A DNA stretch of 64,000 nucleotides from the NCBI GenBank assembly GCA_027532775.1, contig JAPZTO010000002.1:124001-188000 (forward strand), given 5' to 3'. This DNA is from Beijerinckiaceae bacterium (GTDB lineage Bacteria > Pseudomonadota > Alphaproteobacteria > Rhizobiales > Beijerinckiaceae). Under the pieces are notes generated by a model. It made no database searches. It saw only the letters and a program-made list of their open reading frames with translations, and was not told the DNA's origin. This document shows positions 40,500 through 47,304 of this stretch, in pieces; position 1 is the stretch's first letter, and each line of letters begins with the position of its first letter. Position numbers and translations under genes: made by a program.

Positions 40500-41752
40500 T
40501 CAAGCGCCTGTTCTCGTCGTTCGAATGGGTGATCGCGTGGCGCTACCTGCGCTCGCGGCGCCGTGACGGCTTCATCTCCGTGATTGCGGGCTTCTCGTTC
40601 CTCGGGATCATGCTCGGCGTCGCCACGCTGATCGTGGTCATGGCCGTGATGAACGGCTTCCGTCAGGAATTGATGAGCAAGATCCTCGGCGTGAACGGGC
40701 ATGCCTTCATCCAGCCCTATGGCGACGCGCTGACGGATTACGAGGCAATCGCCCAGCGTGTCCGTGCGGCGAAGGGCGTCCGACTGGCTGCGCCGATCGT
40801 CGAGGGGCAGGTGCTTGCCGCCTCTCCCTCGGCGACCAGCGGCGCATTGGTGCGTGGCGTGCGCGAGGCCGATCTCAAGCAGTTCGATTCCGTGGCGAAG
40901 AACGTGATCGACGGCTCGCTGGACGGGCTGGACGGTTCGGAAAAGGTGGCAATCGGGCGCCGCCTTGCCGGCTATCTCGGGCTCGGCATCGGCGACAAGA
41001 TCCGGCTGCTCTCGCCCAAGGGCCCCTCGACGCCGTTCGGCTCGGCGCCGCGGCAGAAATCCTACGAGATCGCCGCAATCTTCGAAGTGGGAATGAGCGA
41101 GTTCGACGCGAGCTTCATCTTCATGCCGCTCGCCGAGGCCCAGCTCTATTTCGACAGCGAGGGCAAGGTCGCGATGATCGAGGTCTTCGTCAACAATCCC
41201 GATCGGATGGATGACGTGAACCCCGCGATCCGCGAGGCTGTCGGCAAGCCGCATGCCCTGACGGACTGGCGCTTCCGCAACCGCACCTTCTTCGGCGCGC
41301 TGGAAGTGGAGCGGAACGTGATGTTCCTGATCCTGACGATGATCGTGCTGGTGGCAGCGCTCAACATCATTTCCGGGCTGACCATGCTGGTGAAGGACAA
41401 GGCGCGGGGCATCGCGATCCTGCGGACGATGGGCGCGACGCGGCGCTCCATCCTGGCGATCTTCATGATGACGGGGGCGGCGATCGGCGTCGGTGGCACC
41501 TTTGTCGGCTTCCTGCTGGGCCTGACCATCGCCTGGAATGTCGAGAGCCTGCGCCAGCTCGTCTCCTATCTTTCCGGCTCGCCGATCTTCCCGCCGGAAC
41601 TCTATTTCCTCTCGCGCCTGCCGGCGGATGTGCGGCCGACCGAGGTGGTGGCCATTGTGGGCATGGCGCTCACCCTGTCGCTGCTGGCGACGCTCTATCC
41701 GGCGTGGCGGGCGGCCCGGCTCGACCCCGTTGACGCCCTGCGCGGGGAATGA
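40496..41752 (+). CDS. lolC: Lipoprotein-releasing ABC transporter permease (LolC/LolE family)
   Basis: A 418-residue inner-membrane permease of the FtsX type. It has one N-terminal helix after [25 protein letters not shown]-type residues, a large periplasmic domain (about 45-270), and three C-terminal helices with the [22 protein letters not shown] coupling loop. With LolD it extracts lipoproteins from the inner membrane for LolA. Only one permease gene is present, so it probably works as a homodimer, as in many non-enteric bacteria. GTG start in the proS stop. Confidence 0.93.
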
Positions 41753-42438
41753 CCATGTCCGCACCCGCACTCCAACTGGCCAATGTCAGCCGGGCCTATG
41801 TCCAGGGCGACAATGTGGTGCCCGTGCTGGGCGGCGTCGATCTCACGCTGCAACCCGGCGAGATGGTCGCGCTGGTCGCGCCGTCGGGGTCCGGCAAGTC
41901 GACCTTGCTCCATTTGGCGGGGTTGCTCGAGAAACCGGATTCGGGCGAGGTTTTCATTGGCGAAACCGCCACGGCCGCGCTGGATGACGGTGCCCGAACG
42001 CGGCTTCGCCGGACGGATATCGGCTTCGTCTACCAGTTCCATCACCTTCTCGGCGAGTTCACCGCGCTGGAGAATGTGATCATGCCGCAGCGTATTGCCG
42101 GCCTTTCCGTTGACGAGGCGAAGGGCCGTGCGGCCGAGATCCTGACCTTCCTCGGCCTCGCGCACCGGCTCGATCACCGCCCGGCGGAACTCTCGGGCGG
42201 CGAGCAGCAGCGCGTTGCCATTGCCCGGGCCGTGGCCAACACGCCGCGGCTGCTGCTGGCGGATGAGCCGACCGGCAATCTCGATCCCGGCACCGGCGAG
42301 CATGTCTTCGCCACCCTGGCGGCCCTGGTGCGCCAGTCGGGCCTCGCCGCTCTGGTCGCGACGCATAATCTCGAGCTCGCCGCCCGGATGGACCGGCGGA
42401 TCACCCTGCGCGGCGGGCAGATCGTTCCCATGGCGTGA
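41749..42438 (+). CDS. lolD: Lipoprotein-releasing ABC transporter ATP-binding protein
   Basis: A 229-residue ATPase partner of LolC. Walker A is APSGSGKST, the signature is [14 protein letters not shown] and Walker B is [12 protein letters not shown]. The start overlaps the lolC stop (ATGA); an ATG two codons later is an alternative. The transcript probably ends before the SOS-type promoter at 42513, though no terminator is seen. Confidence 0.96.
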
Positions 42439-42512: not shown

Positions 42513-42553
42513 TTGACACCGGAACAAACCATGAATTAGAACAGAAACAGAAC
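42513..42553 (+). promoter_or_regulatory. Promoter with LexA (SOS) box
   Basis: A perfect -35 TTGACA (42513-42518), a 17-bp spacer and a weak -10 TTAGAA (42536-42541). GAAC-N7-GAAC (42539-42553) is the complement of the alphaproteobacterial LexA box GTTC-N7-GTTC and overlaps the -10, as expected for repression. It lies 22 bp upstream of the small ORF at 42575. Confidence 0.7.
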
Positions 42554-42574
42554 GCGCAAGGGCAGGGGGCTGTG

Positions 42575-42676
42575 ATGCGAGCTGTGGAAGACCTGATCGA
42601 ACTGGCGTCGATTGGCGCATTCTTCGTTATGGTGGTGGCCTGGTCGGGCGTGGGGACGAACTGGCCGCTGATCTGA
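42575..42676 (+). CDS. 33-residue putative SOS-induced membrane peptide (SidA-like candidate)
   Basis: A short [19 protein letters not shown] then a hydrophobic stretch [11 protein letters not shown] and a short polar end (GTNWPLI). An AGGGGGC ribosome site lies just before the ATG. It has one probable transmembrane helix. It sits 22 bp downstream of the LexA box and 16 bp upstream of dnaE, so one SOS-controlled transcript may carry both. In Caulobacter the 29-residue inner-membrane peptide SidA is SOS-induced and blocks division through FtsW/FtsN; size, topology and control agree. The sequence relation has not been tested, so the name is only a candidate. Confidence 0.6.
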
Positions 42677-42692
42677 AAGAGGGGAGGTTGCC

Positions 42693-45600
42693 GTGTCGGG
42701 CCCGGGCTATATCCACCTGCATGTGCATTCCTCCTATTCGCTGCTGCAGGGCGCACTGCGGATCGGCGATCTCGGCAAGCTCGCCGCAGCGGACAAAATG
42801 CCCGCTTTGGCCCTGACCGACACGAACAACCTGTTCGGGGCTCTGGAATTTTCGGAGAAGATGGTCGGGCTGGGAATCCAGCCGATTGTCGGGATCGAGA
42901 TGCTGGTCGATTTCGCCGACCGGCCACCGGTCCGGAACCGGCCCAACCATCATGACGAGGCGCGCGGCATGCTCGTGCTGCTGGCCGCCTCGGAAGAAGG
43001 CTATGCCAACCTGATGGCCCTTTCGAGCCGGGCCTTCCTCGATTCCCCCGCCCATGAGGGCGTGCATCTGCCGCTTGAGCGGCTGCGCGGCCGGACAGGC
43101 GGGTTGATCGCGTTGACCGGCGGTGCTGCCGGGCCGATCAACCGGGCCTTCGGGCTTGGCGGGGTGGATCTGGCGGCGGTGCGGCTCGCTTCGCTGGCGA
43201 CGCTCTTCCCGGACCGACTTTATCTCGAGATCGAGCGGTTTGGCCTGCGCGAAACCGCCGGGATCGAGGAAAGGCTGCTCGACTTTGCCGAAAACCAGAA
43301 GCTGCCCGTGGTTGCGGCCAACAATGTCCATTTCGGCAAGGCCGAGGATTTCGAGGCGCATGACGCGTTGCTCTGCATTGCCGGAGGGCATTCGGTCGAC
43401 GAGGCCGAGCGGCCGCGGCTGACGCCCGAGCACCGGTTCAAGACGCGCGCGGAGATGATGGCGCTGTTCGCCGATCTCCCGGCTGCGCTGGATGCGAGCG
43501 TCGAGATCGCGCAGCGCTGCCATGTCCGGCCGCGGACGCGGAAGCCGATCCTGCCGCGCTTCACTTCCGGTTCGGAGGACGGGGCGGAGGCGCAGGAGCT
43601 TCGCCGGCAGGCCGAGGAAGGGCTTCGCGCCCGGCTGGCCGCGCATGGCCCGGCGCCCGGCCTTTCCGTGGCGGATTACGAGGAGCGGCTGGCCTTCGAA
43701 CTCGGCGTGATCGAGCGGATGCAATATCCCGGCTACTTCCTGATCGTGGCCGATTTCATCAAATGGGCCAAGGGGGAGGGCATTCCCGTCGGGCCGGGGC
43801 GCGGTTCGGGGGCGGGCTCGCTGGTCGCGTATTCGCTGACCATCACCGATCTCGATCCGCTGCGTTACGGCCTGTTTTTCGAGCGGTTCCTCAACCCCGA
43901 ACGTGTGTCGATGCCGGATTTCGACATCGATTTCTGTCAGGACAGGCGTGATGAGGTCATCCGCTACGTGGTCGGGCGTTATGGCGAGGGCCGGGTTGCG
44001 CAGATCATCACCTTCGGCACGCTGCTCGCGCGCGGGGTGATGCGCGATGTCGGCCGCGTGCTGGGCCTGCGCTATGGCGAGGTGGACCGGCTGACCAAGC
44101 TCGTGCCGCAGAATCCGGCCAATCCGATCACGCTCGAAAAGGCGATCGCCGAGGAACCGCAACTGCGCGCGGCGGCCGAGGAGAACGAAGCCGTCGGGCG
44201 GATGCTGGGCATCGCGCAAAGGCTCGAAGGGCTCTATCGCCATGCCTCGACCCATGCGGCCGGCATCGTGATCGGCGACAGGCCCCTCGAGGAGCTGGTG
44301 CCGCTCTACCGCGATCCGAAATCGGATATGCCGGTCACCCAGTTCAACATGAAATGGGTCGAGCCCGCCGGGCTGGTGAAATTCGACTTTCTCGGCCTGA
44401 AGACGCTGACGATCCTGCAGGGCGCCGTGGACCTGCTGGCCGAGCAGGGCATCGCGGTCGACCTGCTGCAGATCCCGCTCGACGATGCGAAGAGCTACGC
44501 GATGCTCTCGCGCGGAGAGACGGTCGGTGTGTTCCAGGTGGAATCGGGCGGGATGCGGCGGGCCCTCGTCGATATGAAACCCGACCGGATCGAGGATATC
44601 ATCGCGCTGGTGGCGCTCTACCGGCCGGGGCCGATGGCGAATATTCCGGTCTATTGCGATGTGAAGCACGGGCGGCGCGCGCCGGATTATGCCCATCCCC
44701 TGCTGGAGCCGATCCTCGAGGAGACCTGCGGCGTCATCGTCTATCAGGAACAAGTGATGCAGATCGCCAAGGTCATGTCCGGCTATTCGCTGGGCGAGGC
44801 CGACATGCTCCGCCGCGCCATGGGCAAGAAAATCAAGGCGGAGATGGACGCGCAGCGCGCCCGCTTTGTCGAGGGGGCAGTGAAGAACGGCGTCGCCGAG
44901 GCGGACGCGGATTCGATCTTCGACCTGCTCGCGCGCTTCGCGGATTACGGCTTCAACAAGAGCCATGCCGCAGCCTATGCTGTGGTGGCGTACCAGACGG
45001 CCTGGCTGAAGGCCAATCACCCCGTCGAGTTCCTCGCGGCTTCCATGAGCCTCGACCTGTCGAATACCGACAAGCTGGCGGAGTTCCGCCGCGAGGCGCA
45101 ACGGCTGGGCCTTCGCGTGGAGCCGCCGGATATCAACCGCTCGGGCGTGAAATTCGGTGTGCGGAGCGGGGCGATCCTTTATGCACTGGCGGCGATCAAG
45201 GGCGTCGGCGTCGAGGCGGCGAGGGCGCTTGTGGCGTTGCGCGGCGACCGGCCTTTCCGCTCCGTTACCGATTTCGCGCGGCGGGTTGATCCGAAGCTGG
45301 TCAACAAGCGGACGCTCGAACAGCTGATCGCGGCCGGTGCCTTTGACTCGCTCGAGCCCAATCGCGGGCGATTGCTGGCCGGGCTGGAAGCGATCGTCGC
45401 CGAATCCCAGGCCCATCAGGCCGAACTGGCGAGCGGGCAGGGCGGATTGTTCGGCGGGGATTCCGATACTGGCCTCGTCCTGCCGGAAGCGCAGCCGCTC
45501 TCGCTGACAGAACGGTTGCGGCGGGAGCATTCGGCCGTCGGGTTCTTCCTGAGCGGGCACCCGCTTGACCAGTTCGAGACCCTGCTCGACCGGGCCAGCC

Positions 45601-46145
45601 TGACCGATTTCGCGCGGTTCCAGCAGGCAGTGAAAAACGGCGCTACCCATGCCCGGATGGCGGCGACGTTGCTCGATGTCGATATCCGGCGGACCCGCAA
45701 TGGCAACAAGATCGGGATCGCCCAGTTCTCCGACCGGACGGGGCAGTTCGAGGCGATGGTCTTTTCCGAGGGGCTTGCCAAGTACCGCACGATGCTGGAG
45801 CCGGGCACGGCCGTGTTCCTGACCCTGGCCGGCTCGGTGGACGGCGAGGATCTGCGGCTCAGGGTTCTTGATATGGAGCCGCTGGAGCGCGCCCTCCAGC
45901 GCACGCAGAAGGGAATCCGCGTCTTCCTTGCCGATCCGCAGGGCGCGCGCGAGCGGGGCGAGGCGACGCTGTCGGCTCTGGACCGGATGTTGCGCCGGGG
46001 CGGCGAGGGCGAGGTTTCGCTCACGGTCATGCTGTCGGATGGCGGCGAGGTGGATTTGCGCCTGAAGGGCCGATTCGACCTCGGAACCGAGCATATGGCC
46101 CAGCTTTCGGCGATTCCCGGCGTGCTGGACATCAAGCCCTACTGA
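42693..46145 (+). CDS. dnaE: DNA polymerase III alpha subunit, replicative
   Basis: A 1150-residue polymerase of the replicative DnaE1 group. The N-terminal PHP domain begins [16 protein letters not shown]. Catalytic aspartates are in [16 protein letters not shown], followed by the helix-hairpin-helix and OB regions and the beta-clamp-binding end. The start is a GTG at 42693 with GGGGAGG upstream. The gene lies downstream of the LexA box and the 33-codon ORF. It ends 166 bp before rpsB. Confidence 0.96.
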
Positions 46146-46187
46146 ACGATCTGCCTGCGTTCCGGCAGGGTCGATGCGGGAAGGTGC

Positions 46188-46216
46188 TTGCATTTCTCCG
46201 GGATATCGATTAGGCG
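46188..46216 (+). promoter_or_regulatory. Possible promoter of rpsB
   Basis: CTTGCAT (-35 TTGCAT, 46188-46193), 17-bp spacer, TAGGCG (46211-46216), about 95 bp before the rpsB ATG. The long leader could also contain an autoregulatory site, not identifiable by eye. Confidence 0.35.
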
Positions 46217-46311
46217 CGCATCATTCCTCACGCAGGGCTGTCGATTTCGATCGATCCGGTGTCGCCGGCTGGCGGCTCTTACCCCTGCGGCGGCCCAACC
46301 GGAGAAGAACC

Positions 46312-47304
46312 ATGGCGCTACCCGATTTCTCTATGCGTCAGCTGCTTGAAGCTGGCGCGCATTTTGGTCACCAGTCGCATCGCTGGAACCCGAAAATGGC
46401 CCCGTACATTTTCGGCACCCGCAACAACATCCACATCATCGATCTCGCCCAGACCGTGCCGATGCTCTATCGCGCGCTCGAGACGATTTCGGACACGGTT
46501 GCCCGCGGCGGCCGCATCCTGCTGGTCGGCACCAAGCGCCAGGCCCAGGAGCCGATCGCGCAGGCCGCCAAGGCCTCGGCGCAATATTATGTGAATTCGC
46601 GCTGGCTCGGCGGCATGCTGACCAACTGGAAGACGATCTCGAACTCGATCCAGCGTCTGCGCAAGGTCGACGAGATCCTGACGGGTGGGGCTGTCGGCCT
46701 GACCAAGAAAGAGCGCCTGATGCTCAGCCGCGAGCAGGAAAAGCTCACGCGCGCGCTCGGCGGCATCAAGGATATGGGCGGCACGCCGGACCTCCTCTTC
46801 GTGATCGACACGAACAAGGAACAGCTTGCCATCCAGGAAGCCAACCGCCTGAACATCCCGGTTGTCGCGATTGTCGATACCAATTGCGATCCGGACGGCG
46901 TGACCTTCCCGATCCCGGCGAATGACGATGCCGGCCGCGCCCTGGCGCTCTATTGCGAACTCGTGGCCCGTGCTGCCGTTGACGGCATCTCGCGCAGCCA
47001 GTCCTCGCTCGGGATCGATCTCGGCGCGTCGGAAGTTCCGGTTGCCGAGGACCTGCCGTCGGCAGCGACCGGCGAGGGCTTCGTGCGCCTCTCGGCGCCG
47101 CAGGGTGCCCCGGACGACCTGTCGAAGCTGGGCGGCGTCGGCCCGCAGCTTTCGACCAAGCTCAATGAATACGGCATCTTCCATTTCTGGCAGCTGGCTG
47201 CCATGTCGGAAGCCGATCTTGCCGCCCTGGATACCGCGCTGAAGCTGAATGGCCGTGCCGGCCGCGAAGGCTGGCTCGATACGGCGCGCGCCCTCGCGGC
47301 GTGA
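46312..47304 (+). CDS. rpsB: Ribosomal protein S2 with C-terminal helical extension
   Basis: A 330-residue S2, against about 240 in E. coli. Residues 1-255 are the standard S2 domain ([50 protein letters not shown]). The last about 65 residues ([18 protein letters not shown] onward) form a helix-hairpin-helix-like domain nearly identical in pattern to that ending NuoE in this window. Such extensions on S2 occur in Rhizobiales. The ATG at 46312 with GGAGAAG is chosen over an upstream ATG at 46174. Confidence 0.95.

What the first reader, a model, noticed from the sequence alone, without database searches (positions are those of the whole stretch)
42513..42692. LexA-controlled 33-residue membrane peptide upstream of dnaE, a SidA-like candidate
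Seen: perfect TTGACA, GAAC-N7-GAAC overlapping the weak -10, a good ribosome site, a 33-codon ORF with one hydrophobic helix, and dnaE 16 bp downstream. Known: GTTC-N7-GTTC is the alphaproteobacterial SOS box, and Caulobacter SidA is a 29-residue SOS-induced inner-membrane peptide that blocks division. Inference: this is an unannotated SOS division inhibitor, and the replicative polymerase may ride on the same damage-inducible transcript.
Basis: partly seen in the sequence, partly recalled or inferred. Interest (0 to 1): 0.85.

Follow-up and report, generated by a model that had tools for sequence, protein, structure and literature searches.

The report
SidA-like SOS peptide upstream of dnaE
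Just in front of the gene for the main DNA-copying enzyme, this bacterium carries a tiny membrane-peptide gene under what looks like a DNA-damage switch, and the peptide looks like a distant relative of SidA, the Caulobacter peptide that stops cell division while DNA is repaired.

Summary
In detail: TTGACA, a GTTC-N7-GTTC (LexA) box, a ribosome site, a 33-codon one-helix ORF and dnaE 16 nt downstream. One box per window is chance level, but the arrangement is conserved: GAAC-N7-GAAC lies within 500 nt upstream of dnaE in 66 of 100 order-level loci, against 0-2 for six other spacings; a hydrophobic ORF follows in 127 of 135 box-dnaE intervals, 6.5 expected; pN/pS is 0.31, 1.20 and 1.66 in other frames. 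In Caulobacter-type genomes the peptide in this slot is SidA (two scanned: 72 and 74 bits, NF033228 cut-off 35). A profile without the window's genus finds the window ORF first in its whole genome (E 2.8e-5). In G031 and G036 such a peptide lies far from dnaE and still has near-perfect or perfect boxes, so the peptide, not dnaE, seems LexA's target. Against: NF033228 does not score the window peptide, and most class-sample loci lack it. Verdict: probable sidA orthologue of a family wider than the NCBIfam model; induction, FtsW binding and division block are untested.

The parts
41749..42438 (+). lolD-like ABC transporter ATPase gene upstream (context)
   Evidence: Pfam ABC_tran, E 1.3e-31; ORF; the name lolD is recalled
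42513..42518 (+). -35 hexamer TTGACA
   Evidence: sequence; a 5-of-6 or better TTGACA match within 50 nt upstream of the box in 103 of 136 loci
42522..42536 (+). degenerate second LexA box GAAC-N7-GAAT
   Evidence: sequence, comparison; similar imperfect boxes before the detached copy in G031
42536..42541 (+). weak -10 candidate TTAGAA
   Evidence: sequence, 17-nt spacer; not listed by the promoter scan
42539..42553 (+). LexA (SOS) box GAACAGAAACAGAAC, i.e. GTTC-N7-GTTC on the minus strand
   Evidence: conserved upstream of dnaE in 66 of 100 order-level loci
42564..42569 (+). ribosome-binding site AGGGGG
   Evidence: sequence
42575..42676 (+). SidA-like 33-residue one-helix peptide [33 protein letters not shown]
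   Evidence: pN/pS 0.31; best hit in own genome of a profile without the window's genus, E 2.8e-5
42680..42687 (+). ribosome-binding site of dnaE (AGGGGAGG)
   Evidence: sequence
42693..46145 (+). dnaE, replicative DNA polymerase III alpha subunit
   Evidence: Pfam PHP, DNA_pol3_alpha, finger, HHH_6; TIGR00594 1165 bits

Best explanation
The ORF at 42575-42676 is a sidA orthologue. While LexA is intact it sits on the box at 42539-42553 (and perhaps the degenerate neighbour at 42522-42536) and covers the -10 of the TTGACA promoter. DNA damage activates RecA, LexA cleaves itself, and the peptide is made; it inserts in the inner membrane as one helix and holds the FtsW/FtsI/FtsN complex inactive, delaying division until LexA returns. 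dnaE, 16 nt downstream, probably shares the transcript in this genus, but as a passenger of the operator. Shown here, by sequence: promoter/box/ORF anatomy, coding selection, conserved arrangement, homology to SidA, the same box before known SOS genes of this genome, boxes that stay with the peptide in three genomes where dnaE is apart. Inferred from Caulobacter SidA (PMC4211646, passages): membrane insertion, FtsW target, division block. Inferred: LexA binding, induction, shared transcript with dnaE.
For: Slot identity: in Caulobacter-type genomes with a LexA box upstream of dnaE the 29-aa peptide between them is NCBIfam SidA NF033228 (two scanned: 72.3 and 74.0 bits, cut-off 35; loci). Homology: an HMM trained on order-level peptides (mostly Hyphomicrobiales) recovers 24 of 24 f88 and 20 of 27 f29 peptides among 3,094 ORFs at E up to 10, and its first 21 ranks are all expected peptides; hhalign E 1.8e-6 against f88; a 24-row profile without the window's genus (other genera of its family included) hits the window ORF first in the 3.8-Mb genome, E 2.8e-5, next hit E 0.08. 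Regulation: own-genome boxes before recA, lexA, uvrA, rmuC, a PA0069-type radical SAM gene and a probable imuA. Spacing-specific conservation. Detached copies keep boxes in G031 (two one-mismatch), G036 (perfect, weak peptide hit) and G055 (perfect). Coding selection.
Against: NF033228 does not report the window peptide (E up to 10); in 289 class genomes it finds none over its cut-off, and its two weak hits in the window's genome are elsewhere. Window peptide and Caulobacter-type SidA are 21% identical in a ten-row alignment. The order-trained HMM gives modest scores (f88 E 5.7e-4 to 6.6; 7 of 27 f29 peptides missed); one of 20 f88 peptides did not beat the shuffles. The short motif acidic-x3-[LFMG]-x-[SA]-x3-F is rare in the f29 (6 of 30) and class (2 of 16) sets. 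33 of 101 order-level and 85 of 101 class-sample loci have no peptide hit at E<0.1. FtsW position 31 (A31K frees Caulobacter from SidA) and 246 are Ser here. The upstream lolD neighbour was seen in only part of the loci (for example 26 of 65 order-level, 2 of 24 f88 loci with a peptide; a crude signature search on often short stretches). No expression or phenotype data.
Confidence: 0.82

Rival explanations
1. SOS-induced one-helix peptide with a different job: a TisB/DinQ-type membrane-active peptide (TisB recalled), or a modulator of another membrane target, homologous to SidA but diverged.
For: SOS-induced toxic single-helix inner-membrane peptides of another kind exist (DinQ, start of the abstract of PMC3567139 in the listing); identity to SidA is low; FtsW residues 31 and 246 differ.
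Against: Same genomic slot and operator as SidA and profile homology; a motif acidic-x3-[LFMG]-x-[SA]-x3-F in 40 of 55 order-level and 21 of 21 f88 unique peptides versus 1.0% and 0.4% in residue shuffles (but 6 of 30 in f29 and 2 of 16 in the class set).
Confidence: 0.11
2. LexA's target is dnaE (more replicase after damage) and the ORF is only a leader/translational-coupling ORF without a product of its own.
For: 16-nt gap; dnaE reported as SOS-regulated in C. crescentus (PMC3323433 section 8).
Against: Protein-level selection; the hydrophobic peptide persists across gaps of 16-347 nt to the DnaE match; box and peptide found apart from dnaE in G031, G036 and G055; the Caulobacter-type version is a named division inhibitor.
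Confidence: 0.05
3. Chance box and chance ORF.
For: One exact box per 64 kb is expected by chance; no promoter listed by the scan.
Against: 66 of 100 versus 0-2 for other spacings; 127 of 135 versus 6.5 expected ORFs; pN/pS 0.31.
Confidence: 0.01

Closest known systems
SidA of Caulobacter crescentus (NCBIfam NF033228; 29 aa, inner membrane, acts on FtsW; PMC4211646 passages)
   Same: GTTC-N7-GTTC operator, about 30 residues, one hydrophobic helix, directly upstream of dnaE, profile homology
   Different: 33 rather than 29 residues, 21% identical in a ten-row alignment, own C-terminal GTNWPLI tail, not scored by NF033228; 16-nt gap to dnaE against 59 nt to the DnaE match start in L228
DidA of Caulobacter (PMC4211646 passages)
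   Same: small one-helix division inhibitor induced by DNA damage
   Different: 71 aa, SOS-independent (DriD), binds FtsN; not compared by sequence here
YneA / SosA / SulA (SOS division inhibitors of other groups; listings and passages)
   Same: SOS-induced inhibitors of division
   Different: sidA and yneA are called unrelated to sulA in a passage of PMC4211646; not compared by sequence here
dnaE as a member of the alphaproteobacterial LexA regulon (PMC3323433 section 8)
   Same: LexA control of dnaE would come from the same upstream region
   Different: the operator tracks the peptide, not dnaE, in the three genomes where the two are separated

Membership tests
SidA (cell division inhibitor) | passes NCBIfam NF033228 at its cut-off (35 bits) | tested here: not met
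   0 families for the window peptide at E up to 10; 0 of 289 class genomes over the cut-off, the two weak hits in the window's genome lie elsewhere
SidA (cell division inhibitor) | homology to Caulobacter SidA beyond composition | tested here: met
   19 of 20 unique f88 peptides score above the best of 2,000 shuffles of that set; order-trained HMM recovers 24 of 24 f88 peptides; window ORF E 2.8e-5 in the whole genome with the window's genus left out of the profile
SidA (cell division inhibitor) | LexA box over its promoter | tested here: met
   by sequence only, no binding shown
SidA (cell division inhibitor) | about 30 residues with a single membrane helix | tested here: met
   33 aa, Kyte-Doolittle maximum 2.15; hydropathy only
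SidA (cell division inhibitor) | same locus as Caulobacter sidA (upstream of dnaE) | tested here: met

SidA (cell division inhibitor) | binds FtsW and blocks division when made | not testable with these tools
   an FtsW-like gene is present (334.6 bits, just under the model's cut-off of 337.5); residue 145 kept, 31 and 246 Ala to Ser
LexA regulon of Alphaproteobacteria | RecA/LexA-dependent induction | not testable with these tools
   context only: boxes before recA, lexA, uvrA, rmuC and a probable imuA

The most novel reading that the evidence does not exclude
SidA is not a Caulobacter speciality but an old SOS checkpoint peptide of much of the class Alphaproteobacteria, overlooked because it is about 30 codons long and fast-evolving; the SOS box that surveys credited to dnaE is its operator, and dnaE became SOS-inducible by sitting behind it.
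Probability: 0.65. Interest if true: 0.68.

Novelty: new member of a known kind. Interest (0 to 1): 0.58.

Why it matters
It gives Hyphomicrobiales and other Alphaproteobacteria a testable candidate for how they halt division after DNA damage; none of the listings of my searches showed one for that order, judged by titles and starts of abstracts (searches list 20 of 26 and 20 of 28 papers). It also offers a reason why an SOS box sits before the replicative polymerase. A wider SidA model could let annotation pipelines call many missed genes.

Tried and rejected
Rejected: chance box/ORF; pure leader ORF; formal membership by NF033228. I first took family f29 for Caulobacteraceae because its peptides looked alike; its sliding clamp is only 52-54% identical to the PDB clamp 6izo, which I recall as Caulobacter's, so I dropped that label and used the clamp to find family f88. 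The weak detached hits in G035 and G048 have no box, and no exact box lies around the one in G049; probably chance. Locus-tag arithmetic (dnaE CC1926, sidA CCNA_02004, recN CC1983 = CCNA_02062) agreed with adjacency but became unneeded. The terminator-like hairpin at 42605-42618 (0.3 expected) is five pairs inside the ORF. PHROGs and Pfam gave only weak hits; PADLOC was not searched. No structure was predicted.

Rows chosen or dropped. Own-genome boxes: 15 places of 92 matches were looked at, picked by eye for A+T-rich spacers or tandem boxes; six lie before the SOS or SOS-like genes named, the others were unknown, not clearly upstream of a gene, or not identified. One search covered 28 of the 249 f88 genomes, picked by me; L246 was dropped because the script did not find its DnaE start. 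Class sample: 105 of the 276 genomes with a DnaE match were read, the best by score; four on that stretch of the list were skipped (two already held, two at contig ends). One search left out loci with under 250 nt upstream, near-duplicates and the 20 distant loci; its order-level set holds a few Oceanicaulis and Rhodobacteraceae loci. Searches left L262, L271, L269 (one search also L064) out of training as doubtful ORFs. One search trained on window-genus peptides with a too short start; one search repeats it with corrected starts. One search's profile was trained on many of the loci it counts. Independent tests are therefore (f88, f29; window's genus); at least 9 of the 27 hits under 1e-3 were training rows.

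Full report
What is there. At 42513-42518 lies TTGACA; 17 nt on, a weak TTAGAA; GAACAGAAACAGAAC at 42539-42553 (GTTC-N7-GTTC on the other strand); AGGGGG at 42564-42569; ATG at 42575 opens [36 protein letters not shown] at 42674; 16 nt later GTG of dnaE at 42693. dnaE is the replicative polymerase (TIGR00594 1165 bits); a second hit of 478 bits, which I take for dnaE2, lies on another contig downstream of a probable imuA. Upstream on the same strand is a lolD-like ABC gene. The exact box occurs once in the window, 1.17 expected, so by itself it proves nothing.

The genome's own boxes. The genome has 92 exact matches to the pattern and 64 to the reversed control. I looked at 15 of the 92, picked by eye for A+T-rich spacers or tandem boxes. 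Six stand before recA (TIGR02012 588 bits), lexA (TIGR00498 174 bits), uvrA (a fragment in the fetched stretch, 650 bits to NF001503; ssb nearby), rmuC (Pfam RmuC 192 bits), a PA0069-family radical SAM gene (NF033668 535 bits) and a probable imuA (45.7 bits, under the cut-off of 150). For the others I identified no SOS gene; not all were scanned. The radical SAM gene may be the splB of PMC3323433 section 8 (read whole); I did not test that. So the motif stands before known SOS genes here; binding is not shown.

Conservation of the arrangement. The nearest relatives are Rhabdaerophilum sp. SD176 and three MAGs with DnaE 93-95% identical over 300 residues. Upstream of dnaE, within 500 nt on the sense strand, GAAC-N7-GAAC is found in 66 of 100 order-level loci, 28 of 29 loci of family f29, 22 of 27 of family f88 and 21 of 104 of the class sample. 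Spacings N4, N5, N6, N8, N9, N10 give 2, 1, 1, 1, 0, 0 in the first set and at most 3 in the others; the antisense pattern gives 2, 4, 0, 3, the reversed one 0, 0, 0, 1, GACA-N7-GACA 8, 0, 0, 1 in the same four sets. 103 of 136 loci have at least 5 of 6 TTGACA letters within 50 nt upstream of the box, 45 of them 9-12 nt before it. In that register the window has GAAC-AAACCAT-GAAT, one mismatch, with the perfect box 17 nt further; several other loci show such pairs.

The ORF. Between box and dnaE a 20-60 codon ORF with a hydrophobic 17-residue stretch (above 1.6) exists in 127 of 135 intervals (63/65 order, 15/17 class, 19/23 f88, 30/30 f29); Markov shuffles predict 6.5, the antisense strand gives 3. 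Among ten window-genus sequences, the window's included, pooled pN/pS is 0.31 in frame, 1.20 and 1.66 in the other frames. Named carriers include Kaistia, Chelatococcus, Microvirga, Agrobacterium, Hoeflea and Bauldia and, with one-mismatch boxes, Oceanicaulis.

The link to SidA. PMC4211646 (passages) describes SidA as a 29-aa SOS-induced inner-membrane protein that acts on FtsW. With the sliding clamp printed from PDB 6izo (organism recalled, shown by no call) I found three genomes with an identical clamp; FtsW of one of them, with a start I chose, has A31, F145 and A246 as the paper's mutant names require. Of the 17 genomes of that genus (g292) that I examined, 14, the three included, have a perfect box and a 29-residue peptide between it and dnaE; two have a perfect box and 30 residues; one has one-mismatch boxes and 29 residues. 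Two of the 29-residue sequences pass NF033228 'cell division inhibitor SidA' with 72.3 and 74.0 bits over a cut-off of 35; one from another f88 genus (g108) reaches 20.5. So the SidA of Caulobacter-type genomes is the dnaE-upstream peptide. An HMM trained on order-level peptides only recovers 24 of 24 f88 and 20 of 27 f29 peptides at E up to 10 among 3,094 ORFs (f88 E 5.7e-4 to 6.6; best f29 9.1e-5); its first 21 ranks are all expected peptides, and the next, in L235, is the same peptide behind one-mismatch boxes. Profile-profile E is 1.8e-6 (f88, 90% probability) and 2.3e-5 (f29, 76%). A 24-row profile without the window's genus, but with other genera of its family and four f88 rows, run over 61 whole genomes, puts the window ORF first in its own genome (26.7 bits, E 2.8e-5; next 0.08); of 27 places under 1e-3, 25 lie within 0.7 kb upstream of the DnaE match.

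Which gene does LexA serve? In G031 dnaE has no exact box or hydrophobic ORF nearby (L140), but a 33-codon member about 160 kb away has two one-mismatch boxes starting 52 and 31 nt before its ATG. By my arithmetic at even base composition, a one-mismatch box turns up in about 8% of 220-nt stretches, so each alone is weak. In G036 a weak member (E 0.029) far from dnaE has a perfect box. In G055 a perfect box and peptide follow the ABC gene and lie about 600 nt before dnaE. G035's second hit has no box. On three genomes, the box goes with the peptide; dnaE is optional. PMC12700426 (passages) does not name dnaE in its main text, so I could not check its induction in newer Caulobacter data.

Against. 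NF033228 does not score the window peptide. In 289 class genomes it gives none above cut-off, though its best and fifth-best weak hits are the dnaE-upstream peptides of G336 and G123; its two weak hits in the window's genome lie elsewhere; among 14 named controls one is over the cut-off and Caulobacter vibrioides is among the nine that ring. Identity of window and Caulobacter-type peptide is 21% in a ten-row alignment. A short shared motif holds in 40 of 55 order-level and 21 of 21 f88 unique peptides but in 6 of 30 f29 and 2 of 16 class ones. 33 of 101 order-level, 85 of 101 class-sample, 4 of 31 f29, 1 of 29 f88 and 20 of 20 distant loci have no sense-strand hit at E<0.1; no locus had an antisense best hit at that level. 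FtsW 31 and 246 are Ser here, 145 is Phe. The ABC neighbour upstream was seen only in part of the loci. Whether Modell 2011 already noted relatives outside Caulobacter I could not read; the listings of searches showed no paper that does, judged by titles and starts of abstracts.

Papers seen: PMC3323433 section 8 whole, other passages; passages only of PMC4211646, PMC12700426, PMC13384398, PMC9578287, PMC10769358, PMC1839093, PMC6120978; listings only for the rest.

Verdict. A sidA orthologue under a LexA box, with dnaE as probable passenger; function by homology only.

Noticed in passing
window 42522-42536: Second, one-mismatch LexA box shortly after the -35; tandem boxes recur in other lineages.
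   Followed up: yes
L351:431-584 (G031), L355:346-558 (G036), L353:501-647 (G055): SidA-like peptides with perfect or one-mismatch LexA boxes that are not directly before dnaE.
   Followed up: partly
L039:1550-1575: lexA of the own genome has two GTTC-N7-GTTC boxes that share the middle half-site, a likely autoregulatory tandem.
   Followed up: no
L036:1535-1549: LexA box before a PA0069-family radical SAM gene (NF033668, 535 bits), perhaps the 'splB' SOS member of PMC3323433.
   Followed up: partly
L031:1535-1549: A+T-rich LexA box GAACATAAAGTGAAC before a 153-codon frame (MASTDFDFEFGRW...) with no Pfam or NCBIfam family at E 1e-5.
   Followed up: no
L181-L209 (family f29): Many promoters carry an extra GTTC half-site fused to the -35 (GTTCTTGAC), so a GTTC...GAAC inverted arrangement joins the direct repeat (listing).
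   Followed up: no
window 46174-47304: Ribosomal protein S2-like ORF after dnaE with a long C-terminal extension; identity recalled from its sequence, not searched.
   Followed up: no
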